Part shown: piece after piece, positions 18,813 to 26,540 of the stretch
How the letters are laid out: the number at the start of each line of letters is the position of its first letter
Position numbering within the stretch: position 1 is the first letter of the stretch
Position numbers and translations under genes: made by a program
Notes under the pieces: generated by a model
Told to the model about the DNA's origin: nothing
The model's database searches: none
What the model saw: only the letters and a program-made list of their open reading frames with translations
Assembly: GCA_947650285.1 (NCBI GenBank)
Contig: CANTFL010000810.1
Coordinates: 186,001-250,000 of the forward strand
Reading direction: 5' to 3'
DNA length: 64,000 bases
Origin: Hyaloperonospora brassicae
Lineage: Eukaryota; Oomycota; Peronosporomycetes; Peronosporales; Peronosporaceae

Positions 18813-19248
18813 TGTAACGGGGTAGCCCGTTACATGATTGTCATTTAAACAATCTGACAATAAAGAATATTACGTCGAATATTCTTTTAATAATATCACG
18901 AGACATGGTGATATTGTTGGGATGACCGAAGGGTCTACTCATTGGTTGATATCGTGATGATATCAACCCACCAATCGCTGCTAGACGCGCGCAATGGGTG
19001 GTGAGTAGACGTCATCATACATTTAGTTATATTAGTATAATTAGTCAGGACAACAGATATTTAAGAAGTTATAGGACTTATTTATATTAATACAGTTTTA
19101 CTCTTACCAGAGACTAGTCTGACTACTTAGTCTCCTTTCCTTCCTCTTTGTTCCTTAAACACCTAGCAGGGCACTGTCGACCACTGTCGTCTGTAAGAGT
19201 ATACTCCGAACTGGTCAACCAGTACGTAGTCAACAGTGTTCCGTTACA
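18813..19248 (+). repeat. TE-2 5' LTR
   Basis: Its first 22 bases are a hairpin (TGTAACGGG/CCCGTTACA). Further perfect stems are 18862-18871 with 18878-18887, 18892-18899 with 18908-18915, and 18944-18953 with 18959-18968. An outer pair, GTCTACTCA 18933-18941 with 19002-19010, encloses inner arms in a cloverleaf-like fold. Confidence 0.95.
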
Positions 19249-19250
19249 CC

Positions 19251-19268
19251 TGGTAGCACTTTGTAGTC
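19251..19268 (+). other. TE-2 primer-binding site
   Basis: TGGTAGCACTTTGTAGTC lies two bases after the LTR. It is almost the same as in TE-3 although the LTRs are unrelated in sequence, so the same tRNA primer is likely. That tRNA is not identified. Confidence 0.65.
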
Positions 19269-19298
19269 CGTCCGAGGGCCACAACCCCATCGCCCAAC

Positions 19299-20398
19299 AT
19301 GAACATGTTGGGAGATGTAGACGGCGACAGCTTTCACGGAACCCGTGAGAGCTACTCCTATTTGAGTGACATCGAATGGAGTGCGATCGAACGAATGAGT
19401 TCGACCGTTGGCGAGGAAGCCATATGGGCCATGCTATCCTCAAGGGATAGGGACCAGCAACATGCCGTCATTAGCAAGTTCTTGCAACGAGAACTTGATG
19501 AGTCGCGAGCGCAGGTGACCTTGTTACAACAACAAGATCACCAGCGGACCGAAGCATTGATACAACAACAGTTTCAGTCCGCTGAGCCGACGCGTGAGCG
19601 TCGACGGGAGTCTCTACAACTAGAGGTCTCCAATAACCGGGGAGTCGAGGAAGACTCCCTGTTGAGGTGGTTCGTCGAGCTGTACGATGCCATCGATGCT
19701 CGTCGCATCGCAATGAGCGAATGAAAGTATCATTCGCTCAGTCTTACCTAGCAGGAGAAGCCAAAGCTTGGGCCCTGAACCTCAAGTTGCACGACCCAAA
19801 TGTGTTTGGGTCGTTAGATGTTTTCAAGACCCTGTTCAGTGAGACGTTCGAGCCGCCCAGAGCAGAGTTCAGGATACCATTAGAACTCCTCGGAATCAAA
19901 CAGGGTAAGCGTAAGGTTCACGCTTACGCTCAGCACGTACGCTACCTTTCAAGCTGCATGGTAGTGAACCCTGTGAGTGAGTTTGTGTTGATCACAATCT
20001 TTATTCAAGGGCTTTCAGACGGTCCCGTTTGGGACCACCTGTTCCGCGGAGAGCTAAAGACGCTCTCAAAGTCAAATTTCTCAGCGGAGCAAGAAGATTA
20101 TAGTGTGAGGCAGTCTCACGCTACGTTGACCCCGCATCGTCCACAGAGACGATTAGCAGTTGGAGGTCCAGCACCAATGGACCTCTGTCAAGTCGAGGGC
20201 GAGAAACCTCGCCCTATGAACGACAAGCGAATGGTGAGATGCCATCGCTGTCACAAACTGGGACATTATGTATACGAATGCATTGTCCCCCGCTCAGTAC
20301 CTCGCGGTGCTGAGCGCAGTATTTACCCACCAGCAAGAAGAACTGGAGGGAGAGGGTCCGTTGCTGTTGCGAAGTCGCAACAGCGAAGTGGACCATAA
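19299..20398 (+). pseudogene. TE-2 gag (frameshifted)
   Basis: ATG at 19299 opens 141 codons. The frame must change between about 19667 and 19724 to continue through 20398. The first part is acidic and coiled-coil-like (QVTLLQQQDHQRTEALIQQQ). The second part holds the retrotransposon gag core (FAQSYLAGEAKAWAL...) and an intact zinc knuckle CX2CX4HX4C at 20240-20281 (CHRCHKLGHYVYEC). Gag forms the particle and packages RNA. The start codon lies inside a perfect 9-bp hairpin (19293-19301 with 19304-19312). Apart from the one frame change the gene looks whole. Confidence 0.85.
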
Positions 20399-24130: not shown

Positions 24131-25003
24131 GTGGACCTTCAGAAACGAAACGCAGACAAGAATGGAAGAGCAAATGTTCTTTCATTTAAGGTTAACGACC
24201 TAGTACTAATGTCTACGGTAAACCTACCTGGACACGCAGTCACTAGTGTCGGCAGTAGTAAACTACTGCCGAAGTACATTGGGCCATTTCGAGTGTTGTA
24301 TCGCAAGGGCAATGCATACACACTCGAATTACCACGTAAGATGCGCACGCATCCTACGTTTTACGTGGGGAGGCTCTGTTCGTACTGTCAGCACGAGCCT
24401 TCTTCTTCCAATGAAGATAGCCCCCACGTTCAAGAACATCCATCAAGTTCTTGCGTTCGCGCTCCAGACGATCCGTCTGGTCGCGCAGATATGATACCTC
24501 GGAACTTAACCGAGATATCTCCCCGCGAGCTATCGCCAGCTCGCCGAATAGGGAGCGGACATCCCGCTCGACCTGAAGATGCTCTGTGGTGTAATCGGCG
24601 CGGTCTCTCGCCCGATCAGCCTCGCGATCCTTGCGGTTCTTCCGCACGGTATCGGTCAAAGCGTAGCGCCGGTCGCGCTCGTGCTTCAAGTCATCGCGCA
24701 ATTCATCGATTGCGCGATCCATCTCGTAAGGGTCGAGATGGTGAACCGAATTATCTGGAGGAGATCTTTCCTCCTCCACCACATCCTTTGGTTGATGCTC
24801 ACGGTGGTCAACGCTTTCTAGTGGAGCGTATCTTGAATCACCGTGACGATTCAGGATCAAGGACGAGCTACCTCGTCCGGTGGCGGGGGTATCCACCCTC
24901 TTGGAACAGCTGGGAGCCCCGCTCTCAGCTGTTGATGGATGTTGAAGGTCTCGTCCGCCAGTATGACGAGACCCATCCGATGAGTCCTCGGGCCCATTGG
25001 TAA
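24131..25003 (+). CDS. TE-2 pol C-terminus with chromodomain (fragment)
   Basis: An open segment of 290 codons. It begins with the post-integrase GPY/F-like block (LLPKYIGPFRVLYRKGNAYTL), then a low-complexity linker. A chromodomain is encoded from about 24815 (FLVERILNHRDDSG, YLVRWRGYPPSWNSWEP). Chromodomains of chromoviruses bind methylated histone tails and steer integration to heterochromatin. It overlaps the antisense ORF from 24354 onward. Upstream frame breaks separate it from the rest of pol, so it would not be made as part of a full polyprotein. Confidence 0.85.
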   Translation: MDLQKRNADKNGRANVLSFKVNDLVLMSTVNLPGHAVTSVGSSKLLPKYIGPFRVLYRKGNAYTLELPRKMRTHPTFYVGRLCSYCQHEPSSSNEDSPHVQEHPSSSCVRAPDDPSGRADMIPRNLTEISPRELSPARRIGSGHPARPEDALWCNRRGLSPDQPRDPCGSSARYRSKRSAGRARASSHRAIHRLRDPSRKGRDGEPNYLEEIFPPPPHPLVDAHGGQRFLVERILNHRDDSGSRTSYLVRWRGYPPSWNSWEPRSQLLMDVEGLVRQYDETHPMSPRAHW

Positions 25004-25703
25004 ACACGCGCCCTAGGCGCTTGTAGACGGATTTCAAGTTTGCAATTGCGTCACGCATCTCCTCCGAGATGTGTGCCCTTCCCCAGGGAGAACTTAGGGA
25101 ATACACGTCCCTATGTGCACGCTGCGTGTTGTCAACACAACTCGCACAAGGATCTCCCCAAGTGAGGCAAGGAATGTCTGCCTCTCTCGACAAACGATGC
25201 AAACGGTACCTAGCACCGGTTGGCGTTCGCTTTTCAAACTTGATGCGTACCGCTTCAAGTTTTTGGAGCCATCCTTCTCGTCCAAAATTCTTGACATTTT
25301 GGACGAAGGCGTTCCACGCTGCGAAAAGCAAGTTCTTGTCACGCTTTTGGTTAACATTATACCATCGATGCCTAAGGAATGCATCGAGATAAAATTCTTC
25401 TTTAGCGCGGAAGTTACTCGCGCTGATACTTAAGCCATGAAGCTCAGTTGCATCGAATAAAGGAATTCGATGGTGTTGGCTTGTCTCTCGAGACAAGCTA
25501 TTGATGAGCTGCTCAGGCAAGCGCCACGGCTTTAGCTCACCACGCTTCAATGTGGTACCTGTTTCGGTACCACGGCTGTCAGCATAACGACGGCTCTCGC
25601 CATCATCATCACGCTCTTGCAGGGAAGCACGAGTTGATACTGGTGAGGCATAGTATTCCTCACCATAGAGTTCATCATCACTGCCAAACAGACTGTGTTG
25701 CAT
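24354..25703 (-). CDS. TE-2 antisense ORF, 449 aa, unknown function
   Basis: ATG at 25703, no stop for 449 codons. It is coded on the strand opposite gag-pol, from about 400 bp before the 3' LTR back into the chromodomain and linker. The N-terminus is acidic with FGSDDELYGEE, resembling YGSDTDIHGEE in the TE-3 antisense ORF. A mixed basic middle (about residues 100-230) has Trp/Tyr-rich helices. Roughly residues 330-430 are highly charged and coiled-coil-like (HERDRRYALTDTVRKNRKDR). I recognise no domain. The same frame is open above the ATG to about 26018 except for a few stops near 25705-25785, which could be an intron or decay. It is intact although the sense pol is not. It could still be a by-product of overlap with coding sequence for its C-terminal half. 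Confidence 0.5.
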   Translation of the reverse strand: MQHSLFGSDDELYGEEYYASPVSTRASLQERDDDGESRRYADSRGTETGTTLKRGELKPWRLPEQLINSLSRETSQHHRIPLFDATELHGLSISASNFRAKEEFYLDAFLRHRWYNVNQKRDKNLLFAAWNAFVQNVKNFGREGWLQKLEAVRIKFEKRTPTGARYRLHRLSREADIPCLTWGDPCASCVDNTQRAHRDVYSLSSPWGRAHISEEMRDAIANLKSVYKRLGRVFTNGPEDSSDGSRHTGGRDLQHPSTAESGAPSCSKRVDTPATGRGSSSLILNRHGDSRYAPLESVDHREHQPKDVVEEERSPPDNSVHHLDPYEMDRAIDELRDDLKHERDRRYALTDTVRKNRKDREADRARDRADYTTEHLQVERDVRSLFGELAIARGEISRLSSEVSYLRDQTDRLERERKNLMDVLERGGYLHWKKKARADSTNRASPRKT

Positions 25704-26085
25704 TTAACGAGTTTAATCGTTCGACAGTGCTCTTGACGAACAATGAGGCACCGCCGGTGATCGGGATGTCTTTGGAACGTTGCGCTAGTCAGGCACGTCT
25801 GACTCGCTAGAATTGATGACCTCATTGACAAGGTCATCATGTGCACGTGTTGCGATACCGCGTGCTTCTGCAGCACCTTCTGCTGCAGACGGAGAACAAG
25901 AAGCAGACGAAGACACAGATGCTGACACAGCAGCAGGCTGTGTGGTCTTCGAATCACCTCGCATAGACATGTTAACTATGCGAGGCAAGGTCAGGAGTGA
26001 ATGGGTCTGACCAAACAAGTGCTCCCTGTCTCACTGGTGTCCACAGGTGGCCACCAAGTTTTCGATAGTCACACGGTGACAATCA

Positions 26086-26101
26086 GATAAGGGAGGGGTG
26101 A
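26086..26101 (+). other. TE-2 polypurine tract
   Basis: ATAAGGGAGGGGTGA abuts the 3' LTR, as expected for the plus-strand primer. Confidence 0.8.
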
Positions 26102-26540
26102 TGTAACGGGGCAGCCCGTTACATGAAATTGTCATTGAAACAATCTGACAATAAAGAATATTACGTCGAATATTCTTTTAACAATATCACGAGACATGGT
26201 GATATTGTTGGGATGACTGAAGGGTCTACTCATTGGTTGATATCGTGATGATATCAACCCACCAATCGCTGCTAGACGCGCGCAATGGGTGGTGAGTAGA
26301 CGTCATCATACATTTAGTTATATTAGTATAATTAGGTCAGGACAACAGATATTTAAGAAGTTATAGGACTTAATTATATTAATACAGTTTTACTTTTACC
26401 AGAGACTAGTCTGACTACATAGTCTCCTTTTCTTCCTCTGTGTTCCTTAAACACCTAGCAGGGCACTGTCAACCACTGTCGTCTATAAGAGTATACTCCG
26501 AACTGGTCAACCAGTACGTAGTCAATAGTGCCCCGTTACA
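26102..26540 (+). repeat. TE-2 3' LTR
   Basis: Same ends as the 5' LTR. It keeps all the same stems. In this copy one stem is longer (ACAATATCAC with GTGATATTGT), because a base that mismatches in the 5' LTR pairs here. Confidence 0.95.

What the first reader, a model, noticed from the sequence alone, without database searches (positions are those of the whole stretch)
18813..26540. Element-wide lattice of perfect short hairpins in TE-2
More than thirty perfect inverted repeats with 8-13 bp stems and loops of 1-9 nt (a few longer) fill the LTRs, leader, gag, pol, the double-strand-coded 3' part and the non-coding tail, with many 5-7 bp stems between. Assuming equal base frequencies, 8-bp stems with loops of 2-10 nt should occur about 0.14 times per kb, or about one in the whole element. 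The flanking LINE and the cellular genes look ordinary by eye. Because the stems are in non-coding as well as coding parts, codon bias cannot explain them. Possible causes are a selected RNA or DNA fold (packaging, protection, regulation of silencing) or a copying process that perfects near-hairpins. I know of no described retrotransposon with this property.
Basis: seen in the sequence. Interest (0 to 1): 0.92.

Follow-up and report, generated by a model that had tools for sequence, protein, structure and literature searches.

The report
Retrotransposons built from tiny hairpins
A group of jumping genes in a downy-mildew-like oomycete is written, end to end and even inside its protein genes, as a chain of dozens to hundreds of short perfect hairpins whose size is typical of each family, which points to strong selection on how its RNA or DNA copy folds.

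Summary
TE-2 has 51 perfect stems of 8 bp or more (loop 1-10); dinucleotide shuffles give 0.95. Folding excess over shuffles is 30%, against 0.6% for window genes. It is not private to TE-2: six of six large Ty3/Gypsy stretches measured have such a lattice, two Copia elements do not, two decayed Ty3 remnants show only a mild excess. Geometry is family-specific: TE-2 stems 6-11 bp; L031, L033 8 bp plus chance ends; L042, TE-3, TE-1 5-6 bp with 3-nt loops. Codon-preserving shuffles do not explain it. Stems were constrained while elements replicated, not after insertion; two intact subfamilies kept far more hairpins than matched simulations. Loop inversions in TE-2 show that template switching also acts. 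My reading: selection keeps a family-specific hairpin lattice in the replicating genome, most likely genomic RNA; function is a guess (own Gag first, silencing shield second). It works like genome-scale ordered RNA structure of RNA viruses. Ten literature searches listed no retrotransposon described this way.

The parts
18808..18812 (.). 5' target-site duplication GGTTG
18813..19248 (+). 5' LTR with 4 perfect stems >=8 bp (18813-18834, 18862-18887, 18892-18915, 18944-18968)
18813..26540. TE-2, Ty3/Gypsy element with chromodomain; lattice of 51 perfect stems >=8 bp (full list), 109 stems >=6 bp with loops 1-10
19667..20398 (+). gag ORF (Retrotrans_gag, weak CCHC); stems at 19714-19740, 19791-19814, 19905-19930 (two registers), 20163-20185, 20196-20215, 20363-20384
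20398..20404 (+). slippery heptamer AAAAAAC, 5 nt before the hairpin 20410-20441
   Evidence: it follows an in-frame TAA in TE-2
20410..20441 (+). hairpin (one T.G mismatch) downstream of the heptamer, at the same place in L031, L033 and L042; likely frameshift stimulator
20543..20576 (+). longest perfect stem, 13 bp, loop 8
21284..22821 (+). reverse transcriptase / RNase H region in broken frames (21284-21880, 22141-22821)
21818..21841 (+). 11-bp stem; 2-nt loop CA here, TG in 7 of 13 copies
22379..22404 (+). 10-bp stem; 6-nt loop inverted (5 of 6 bases) in L023
22806..23771 (+). integrase (H2C2; rve just under its cut-off)
23300..23322 (+). 10-bp stem; loop AAA here, TTT or TTC in 11 of 13 copies
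23864..23886 (+). 10-bp stem; loop AAC here, GTT in L010 and L016
24131..25003 (+). SH3_Tf2-1 and chromodomain ORF
24340..24353 (+). 6-bp stem; 2-nt loop CA here, TG in L014
24354..25703 (-). antisense ORF, 449 aa, overlapping the sense ORF by 650 nt; 9 stems >=8 bp start within it (4 in the overlap, 5 in the antisense-only part)
26102..26540 (+). 3' LTR; its stems match those of the 5' LTR
26541..26545 (.). 3' target-site duplication GGTTG
3735..10749 (+). TE-1, related decayed Ty3/Gypsy element with a 5-6-bp, 3-nt-loop lattice (stems of 5 bp 88 vs 36.6; of 6 bp 39 vs 10.8)
46736..54430 (+). TE-3, 87-88% like L042; 5-6-bp, 3-nt-loop lattice (stems of 5 bp 118 vs 44.1; of 6 bp 30 vs 9.8)

Best explanation
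A clade of chromodomain Ty3/Gypsy retrotransposons in this oomycete genome is under selection to keep its genome folded as a long series of short, local, perfectly Watson-Crick-paired hairpins, with a stem and loop length typical of each family. Selection acts while the element replicates and works mostly through single, usually synonymous, base changes. The folded molecule is most likely the genomic RNA (about 65%), otherwise single-stranded cDNA or both strands. Template switching at the hairpins during copying also happens and may help to seed or repair stems, but is not the main maintainer. Function is inferred, not shown: my first guess is cooperative recognition and compaction of the genomic RNA by the element's own Gag (about 35%), because geometry is family-specific; the second is hiding the RNA from small-RNA silencing (about 20-25%). 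One hairpin, at the gag/pol junction, is very probably a -1 frameshift stimulator.
For: Lattice in six of six large Ty3/Gypsy stretches measured (TE-1, TE-2, TE-3, L031, L033, L042) and in the 1.1-kb end of a further TE-2 relative in L019 (4 stems >=8 bp vs 0.2); no stem >=8 bp in two Copia elements; window genes at chance. Codon-preserving shuffles: L042 141 vs 29.8 (sd 5.2), L031 43 vs 3.6, L033 24 vs 3.8, Copia L030 21 vs 20.1. In 12 TE-2 rows, variants shared by two or more rows are about halved in stems (0.56% vs 1.02% of cells) while private variants are nearly equal (2.69% vs 2.90%). L042 vs L043, both open, 78 differences in 2301 nt: 68 and 71 hairpins, 62 in common; simulations from L042 keep 51.5 in total (max 63 of 400 runs), from L043 54.3 (max 66). 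Shared TE-2 stem variants: G.U 44 of 71 expected, A.C 23 of 64, other 35 of 93; bootstrap P(G.U<=A.C) 0.005, the sign expected for sense RNA. Folding excess 30% at 350-nt fragments. Family-specific stem and loop spectra.
Against: Antisense folds slightly better than sense in all six Ty3/Gypsy sequences and all four; stems with one G.U are near chance in intact L042 and L033 and equal to A.C in L031: sense-RNA selection should tolerate G.U. On L042/L043 the polarised changes run the other way (WC to A.C 8, WC to G.U 3), and differences are not rarer in the union of both sets of stems (29 vs 26.4 expected by share). In gag the shared variants of TE-2 are not reduced in stems (0.68% vs 0.66%). 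Compensatory changes are few within families. Two decayed Ty3-related stretches show only a mild excess (L027 24 vs 14.3, L028 20 vs 11.2 stems >=5 bp). Loop inversions show a copying process too. No binding, packaging or silencing datum; one genome only.
Confidence: 0.6

Rival explanations
1. Copying origin: the reverse transcriptase (or host replication) of this clade often switches template at near-hairpins, copying one arm onto the other. The lattice is then a mutational by-product, and its geometry a fingerprint of the enzyme.
For: Loop inversions in TE-2 copies: 5 of 117 hairpins against 0.61 expected from length-matched segments (p 4e-4), several exact (23300 AAA/TTT, 23864 AAC/GTT); L031 6210 CGTT/AACG. 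Strand symmetry and perfect pairing. LTRs, coding and non-coding parts all carry stems. Template switching is reported to make and repair hairpins (PMC8794818, passages read).
Against: Repair would leave many two-sided changes: none among 78 differences between L042 and L043, 5 shared in TE-2 where about 126 one-sided shared variants are missing. The 17 L042/L043 differences that sit in an L043 stem are single-base changes, 15 of them at third codon positions, not arm-long blocks. Half-decayed stems are not in excess in intact L042. L031 loop inversion 1 of 92 vs 0.23, not significant (its hairpin lies in a 51-nt tandem duplication); L042 against TE-3 and TE-1 1 of 251 loop comparisons vs 0.44.
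Confidence: 0.17
2. Silencing shield: local hairpins make the RNA a poor target for small-RNA-loaded Argonaute, while stems stay too short for Dicer.
For: In P. infestans most small-RNA loci that overlap an annotated feature overlap retrotransposons, mostly with 24-30-nt RNAs (PMC3804510, passages read). TE-2 stems with loops up to 10 nt stay at 13 bp or less and few pass 6 bp in L042. Large-scale structure of RNA viruses is proposed to shield RNA (PMC7642675, passages read).
Against: Two Copia elements of the same genome lack it. It does not predict a fixed stem and loop length per family, nor avoidance of G.U.
Confidence: 0.2
3. DNA-level or two-strand fold: hairpins matter in single-stranded cDNA, or in both sense and antisense RNA (for example to stop the two transcripts of this doubly coding element from annealing).
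For: Sense and antisense fold alike; neither G.U nor A.C stems in excess in L042; long antisense ORF in TE-2, TE-3, L031, L033 and L042, that of L031 with 30 protein relatives.
Against: G.U tolerated over A.C in TE-2 shared variants. Lattice is not denser in the antisense ORF. No transcript data.
Confidence: 0.15
4. Chance, base composition, simple repeats or codon usage.
For: One locus, L029, looked hairpin-rich (19 stems >=8 bp) only because of an AT microsatellite; it was dropped.
Against: Dinucleotide and codon-preserving shuffles; stems also in LTRs and tail; no microsatellite found in TE-1, TE-2, TE-3, L031, L033 or L042.
Confidence: 0.01

Closest known systems
Genome-scale ordered RNA structure (GORS) of positive-strand RNA viruses
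   Same: Many consecutive local stem-loops along the whole genome, large folding-energy excess over dinucleotide shuffles, pairings mostly not conserved in place between relatives (9 of 46 hairpins kept between L031 and L033). PMC7642675 gives 15% for SARS-CoV-2 and 23.4% as the highest among vertebrate RNA viruses then analysed (passages read).
   Different: LTR retrotransposon; TE-2 30% by a similar measure (350-nt fragments); stems perfect and of a length typical of the family; antisense folds as well as sense; loop inversions.
Dispersed packaging signals of RNA viruses
   Same: Many hairpins spread over a genome (PMC6281560, search listing only).
   Different: I saw no shared loop motif; only a closing-pair bias that differs between families; no binding data.
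Yeast Ty3 genomic RNA
   Same: Ty3 relative with mapped RNA structure (PMC11381356, passages read).
   Different: The passages describe 14 well-folded regions in vivo, not a whole-genome lattice of perfect short stems.
Oomycete Ty3/Gypsy groups Chronos and Archon
   Same: Oomycete Ty3/Gypsy; Chronos has a chromodomain (PMC5348765, abstract and passages).
   Different: The words hairpin, stem-loop, inverted repeat and antisense do not occur in its main text. Membership of TE-2 in Chronos was not tested.
Template-switch-made RNA hairpins
   Same: Perfect stems, loop inversions (PMC8794818, passages read).
   Different: There, events in RNA genes; here a lattice over a whole mobile element, kept mainly by constraint.

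Membership tests
Ty3/Gypsy chromodomain LTR retrotransposon | gag, RT-RNase H, integrase after RT, chromodomain | tested here: met
   TE-2 in pieces (RT and rve pieces below their cut-offs there), L031 and L033 in one frame
Ty3/Gypsy chromodomain LTR retrotransposon | LTRs with TG...CA ends and short target duplication | tested here: met
   TE-2: TGTAACGGGG...CCCCGTTACA, GGTTG duplication
GORS | folding-energy excess along the whole genome | tested here: met
   84% of 64 TE-2 windows have z<-2; 30.1% over 22 fragments
GORS | very many local stem-loops, poorly conserved in place | tested here: met
   172 hairpins (stem >=5, loop 1-6) in 6.2 kb of L042, 30.8 expected; 9 of 46 kept L031/L033
GORS | excess greater on the RNA strand that carries the structure (my own criterion, recalled; from G.U pairs) | tested here: not met
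   antisense higher in 6 of 6 and 4 of 4 Ty3/Gypsy sequences
GORS | genome of a positive-strand RNA virus | tested here: not met
   retrotransposon; it works like GORS but is not filed as a member
Dispersed packaging signals | shared recognition motif in many hairpins | tested here: inconclusive
   5'-side of the closing pair: pyrimidine 123 of 172 in L042, purine 44 of 65 in L031 and 30 of 39 in L033, 33 of 64 purine in TE-2
Dispersed packaging signals | binding by Gag or coat protein and effect on assembly | not testable with these tools
   needs experiment
Template-switch-made hairpins | loop inversion between related copies | tested here: met
   TE-2 5 of 117 vs 0.61; L031 1 of 92 vs 0.23, not significant
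Template-switch-made hairpins | stems repaired by two-sided change | tested here: inconclusive
   0 among 78 L042/L043 differences; 5 shared in TE-2 vs 0-3 slid; 4 pairs in 9 hairpins kept L031/L033
-1 frameshift signal (one hairpin only) | slippery heptamer in gag phase, hairpin 5-9 nt downstream, pol in -1 frame (recalled criteria) | tested here: met
   L031, L033, L042 (ORF frames). In TE-2 the heptamer follows an in-frame TAA, so not met there
Chronos | placement in the Chronos RT clade, extra archaeal-type RNase H | not tested
   no tree was built

The most novel reading that the evidence does not exclude
Each retrotransposon family carries its own hairpin code: a fixed stem length and loop length repeated tens to hundreds of times through genes and LTRs, perfectly paired, read by the family's own Gag or reverse transcriptase as a mark of self that sorts its genome from host RNA and from rival families. 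This would be a new kind of genome-wide information layer, written mainly in synonymous sites.
Probability: 0.27. Interest if true: 0.95.

Novelty: new variant of a known kind. Interest (0 to 1): 0.86.

Why it matters
It gives a case in which a mobile element's whole sequence is shaped by folding, with an effect above the highest value quoted for vertebrate RNA viruses in the paper seen, and in a genome whose families differ in hairpin size. That makes an old question testable: how LTR retrotransposon RNAs are told apart from host RNA, or hidden from silencing. It also gives a natural system in which selection on stems and template switching at stems can be separated.

Tried and rejected
Stem conservation measured from the window copy (5.0% vs 11.2% divergence) was dropped as evidence, because conditioning on intact stems in one copy alone would give about this ratio; one search replaced it, although its stem set (pairs in a perfect stem in 3 or more of 12 rows) keeps some of that bias. 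L029 was first taken as a further hairpin-rich family and withdrawn: its excess is an AT microsatellite. Five old L031 copies (L035-L039) and TE-1/TE-3 against L042 gave little covariation signal (two-sided WC pairs 4 against 1-7 slid; 6 and 9 against 1-8 slid), because their differences are mostly decay after insertion. Amino-acid identity in family-specific stems was slightly lower than in flanks for L031 (0.54 vs 0.61) and equal for L033 (0.64 vs 0.65): no verdict. GNRA loops in L031 looked enriched (5 of 18) but so did their reverse complement (3 of 18), so they say nothing about strand. Rfam gave no match at gathering score in 3000-27000. Searches for relatives in viral and prokaryote contigs found none. 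Dropped rows: L017 and L019 were left out (partial or mosaic); L023 is partial but kept; L018, L020, L022, L024, L026-L028 hold LTR ends or neighbours and were not counted as copies. Family choice: L031, L033, L030, L032 were picked by ORF length from 150 listed integrase hits, L042 and L043 from 150 listed H2C2 hits; this is not a random sample. The first script stopped with an error and was rewritten.

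
Full report
What was checked. TE-2 lies at 18813-26540 with paired LTRs (96.1% alike) and a GGTTG target duplication. A script that lists maximal perfect stems with loops of 1-10 nt finds 51 stems of 8 bp or more, against a mean of 0.95 (maximum 3) in 20 dinucleotide-preserving shuffles; 35 vs 0.2 at 9 bp and 21 vs 0 at 10 bp. 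The stems lie in LTRs, gag, pol, the part coded on both strands and the tail at 5.3-10.1 per kb. The excess is concentrated at loops of 2-11 nt, so these are local hairpins.

What the element is. Pfam finds gag, RNase H, integrase zinc domain, SH3_Tf2-1 and chromodomain in TE-2's pieces, with RT and rve below their cut-offs: a Ty3/Gypsy chromodomain element with broken frames. The genome (100.6 Mb) is that of an oomycete: the pol of its intact relative L031 is 97% identical over 77% of the query to a Peronospora matthiolae protein, and the other named hits in the list are from Phytophthora and Globisporangium (best 120 of 1511 listed). The window holds two more Ty3/Gypsy elements, TE-1 (3735-10749) and TE-3 (46736-54430), 80% alike in DNA, related to TE-2 at the protein level.

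It is a property of a clade, and its geometry is family-specific. Spectra of stem and loop length were compared with 12 shuffles each. TE-2 and its copy L034: stems 6-11 bp, loops 2-11. L031 (one open 1795-aa frame; 22 other places at 99-100% to its first 400 nt among the 40 listed): stems of 8 bp 28 vs 0.8, 9 bp 15 vs 0.0, loops peaking at 4. L033 (1940 aa, 62% identical to L031): 8 bp 15 vs 0.6, loops mostly 5-8. L042 (1606 aa; TE-3 is 87-88% like it), TE-3 and TE-1: stems of 5 bp 116, 118 and 88 against 32, 44 and 37; of 6 bp 40, 30 and 39 against 8-11; loops of these stems peak sharply at 3 (49 vs 4.9, 54 vs 5.1, 37 vs 5.2). In L042 only 5 of 62 stems of 6 bp or more reach 7 bp, where chance ends predict a quarter to a third; in the decayed TE-3 and TE-1 the cap is weaker (10 of 43, 9 of 45). 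In L031 and L033 lengths fit a unit of 8 bp with chance ends (share of 9 bp or more among 8 bp or more 0.44 and 0.46, 0.44 predicted). The 1.1-kb end of a 71.6% relative of TE-2 in L019 has 4 stems of 8 bp or more vs 0.2. Two Copia elements (L030, L032) have no stem of 8 bp or more; L030 is near chance throughout, L032 has a mild excess of 6-7-bp stems (15 vs 5.8, 5 vs 1.8). Window genes at 28-45 kb are at chance. Two decayed Ty3-related stretches in neighbouring DNA, L027 3600-5100 and L028 4500-5900, show only a mild excess (stems of 5 bp or more 24 vs 14.3 and 20 vs 11.2). L029 looked rich but that is an AT microsatellite; no microsatellite was found in the six main stretches. Families were picked by ORF length from lists of 150 hits, so six of six is not a census.

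It is not codon usage. Shuffling synonymous codons within each ORF: L042 141 hairpins (stem >=5, loop <=6) vs 29.8 (sd 5.2), L031 43 (stem >=7, loop <=8) vs 3.6, L033 24 (stem >=7, loop <=10) vs 3.8, Copia L030 21 (stem >=5) vs 20.1. TE-2's own frames are broken and were not tested this way. By a measure close to that of the RNA-virus literature (350-nt fragments, dinucleotide shuffles) the folding excess of the sense strand is 30.1% for TE-2, 29.3% for L034, 15.4% for L031, 16.8% for L042, 0.8% for Copia L030, 0.6% for genes; with 150-nt windows Copia L032 gives 5.5%. The highest value quoted for vertebrate RNA viruses in PMC7642675 is 23.4% (passages read); their fragments overlap and mine do not, so the comparison is approximate.

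Constraint acts during replication. In 12 rows of the TE-2 family (window copy and 11 others), private variants, which mostly arise after insertion, are about as dense in stems as elsewhere (2.69% vs 2.90% of cells), while variants shared by two or more rows are about halved (0.56% vs 1.02%); this holds for LTRs, pol and the 3' part but not for gag (0.68% vs 0.66%). Two subfamilies of L042, both open over a 2301-nt stretch, differ at 78 sites, 67 of them synonymous. They have 68 and 71 hairpins, 62 with the same centre. Simulations with the same numbers of each base change and the same synonymy, starting from L042, lose 19.6 (sd 3.1, minimum 11) and gain 3.1, against 6 and 9 observed; starting from L043, lose 20.0 and gain 3.3, against 9 and 6. 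No run of 400 ends with as many hairpins in either direction (maximum 63 vs 71; 66 vs 68). Most differences are derived in L042 (56 of 78 by outgroup), so the second direction is the apter one, and it is retention more than gain that stands out. Between L031 and L033, 62.8% alike in DNA, 9 of 46 hairpins stay in place, and 4 pairs in 3 of these changed on both sides and stayed paired, against 0-2 in slid controls. Most hairpins are specific to one family, so the lattice is kept while its members turn over.

Which molecule folds. For sense RNA: among shared TE-2 stem variants G.U is tolerated better than A.C or other mismatches (44 of 71 expected, 23 of 64, 35 of 93; bootstrap over 117 hairpins P 0.005; in eight slid controls G.U and A.C balance overall, though single slides vary from 54:75 to 79:53). 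Against: antisense folds slightly better in all six Ty3/Gypsy sequences and all four; stems with one G.U are near chance in L042 and L033 and equal to A.C in L031; polarised L042/L043 changes give WC to A.C 8 and WC to G.U 3. I put sense RNA first, at about 65%, and keep cDNA or both strands open.

A copying footprint. In TE-2, 5 of 117 hairpins have their loop inverted between copies, 0.61 expected from length-matched non-hairpin segments (p 4e-4); with loops of 3 nt or more, 4 of 111 vs 0.34. Examples: 23300 AAA in the window copy and TTT or TTC in 11 of 13 copies; 23864 AAC and GTT; 22379 a 6-nt loop with 5 of 6 bases inverted. In L031 one hairpin (6210, CGTT and AACG) of 92 passes, not significant; L042 against TE-3 and TE-1 gives 1 of 251 comparisons vs 0.44. 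Loop inversion is a mark of template switching at hairpins (PMC8794818, passages read), so TE-2 stems probably pair during copying. But repair by switching should leave two-sided changes, and there are none among the 78 L042/L043 differences and few in TE-2. So switching is real and, I think, secondary.

One hairpin has a known kind of job. At the gag/pol junction, L031, L033 and L042 carry AAAAAAC, AAAAAAC and GGGAAAC in the right gag phase, with the same hairpin 7-8 nt downstream and pol in the -1 frame: a -1 frameshift signal by textbook features (recalled). TE-2 has the heptamer and hairpin too, but an in-frame TAA comes just before the slip site, unexplained.

Function. Shown: excess, family geometry, constraint, turnover, loop inversion in TE-2. 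Inferred: what it is for. Family-specific geometry suggests a family-encoded reader, hence Gag-based packaging or compaction first; the shield against small RNAs second, since Phytophthora retrotransposons are sources of 24-30-nt RNAs (PMC3804510, passages read) but the two Copia elements lack the lattice.

Known or new. Ten searches of the open-licence PMC library listed no paper describing such a lattice in a retrotransposon; I saw the listings: 20 of 64 papers, 15 of 351 (38), 15 of 49 (39), 0 of 0 (61), 5 of 5 (62), 10 of 24 (63), 10 of 274 (64), 10 of 129 (73), 8 of 272 (74), 8 of 71 (75). Papers outside that library were not searched. The phenomenon works like genome-scale ordered RNA structure but fails two of the features I listed for it, so it is filed as a new variant and not as a member.

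Changes made on rereading the calls: L029 withdrawn, the two weak Ty3 remnants and the gag exception added, both simulation directions given.

Noticed in passing
24354-25703 (-); L031 5540-6931 (-); L033 5704-7215 (-); L042 4936-6201 (-); 52657-53790 (-): Long antisense ORF over the 3' part of these Ty3/Gypsy elements. The L031 one has 30 protein relatives, the named ones in Phytophthora, Peronospora and Hyaloperonospora, and no Pfam match, nor has that of L033.
   Followed up: partly
L031 1012-1053; L033 1158-1198; L042 654-695; 20398-20441: Conserved -1 frameshift signal (heptamer plus hairpin). In TE-2, and in L010, L013 and L016, the heptamer overlaps a TAA.
   Followed up: partly
18813-18834, 26530-26540: LTR has a 10-bp terminal inverted repeat TGTAACGGGG/CCCCGTTACA, and its start is itself a hairpin of nearly the same sequence.
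   Followed up: no
14043-14479 and about 55285-55540: Two LTR relatives with no TE-2-like protein match next to them; the one at 55 kb keeps the GGTTGAT hairpin with one pair changed on both sides (by eye).
   Followed up: partly
about 24469-24765: A stretch of about 300 nt at which the best alignments of 7 copies break: probably a subfamily-specific segment.
   Followed up: no
1612-2169: gag-like fragment of a further Ty3/Gypsy element.
   Followed up: no
L042, TE-3 versus L031, L033: Opposite closing-pair bias of hairpin loops: 5'-pyrimidine in L042 (123 of 172) and TE-3 (99 of 139), 5'-purine in L031 (44 of 65) and L033 (30 of 39). Unexplained.
   Followed up: partly
41080-41523 and 43294-43737: Neighbouring duplicated genes, 68% alike in DNA, probably glycosyltransferase-like (by eye, not tested).
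   Followed up: no
L031 1692-1783 and 6160-6263; L033 1810-2185; L042 1435-1700: Tandem repeats of 33, 51, 66 and 120 nt inside the pol frame of intact families.
   Followed up: no
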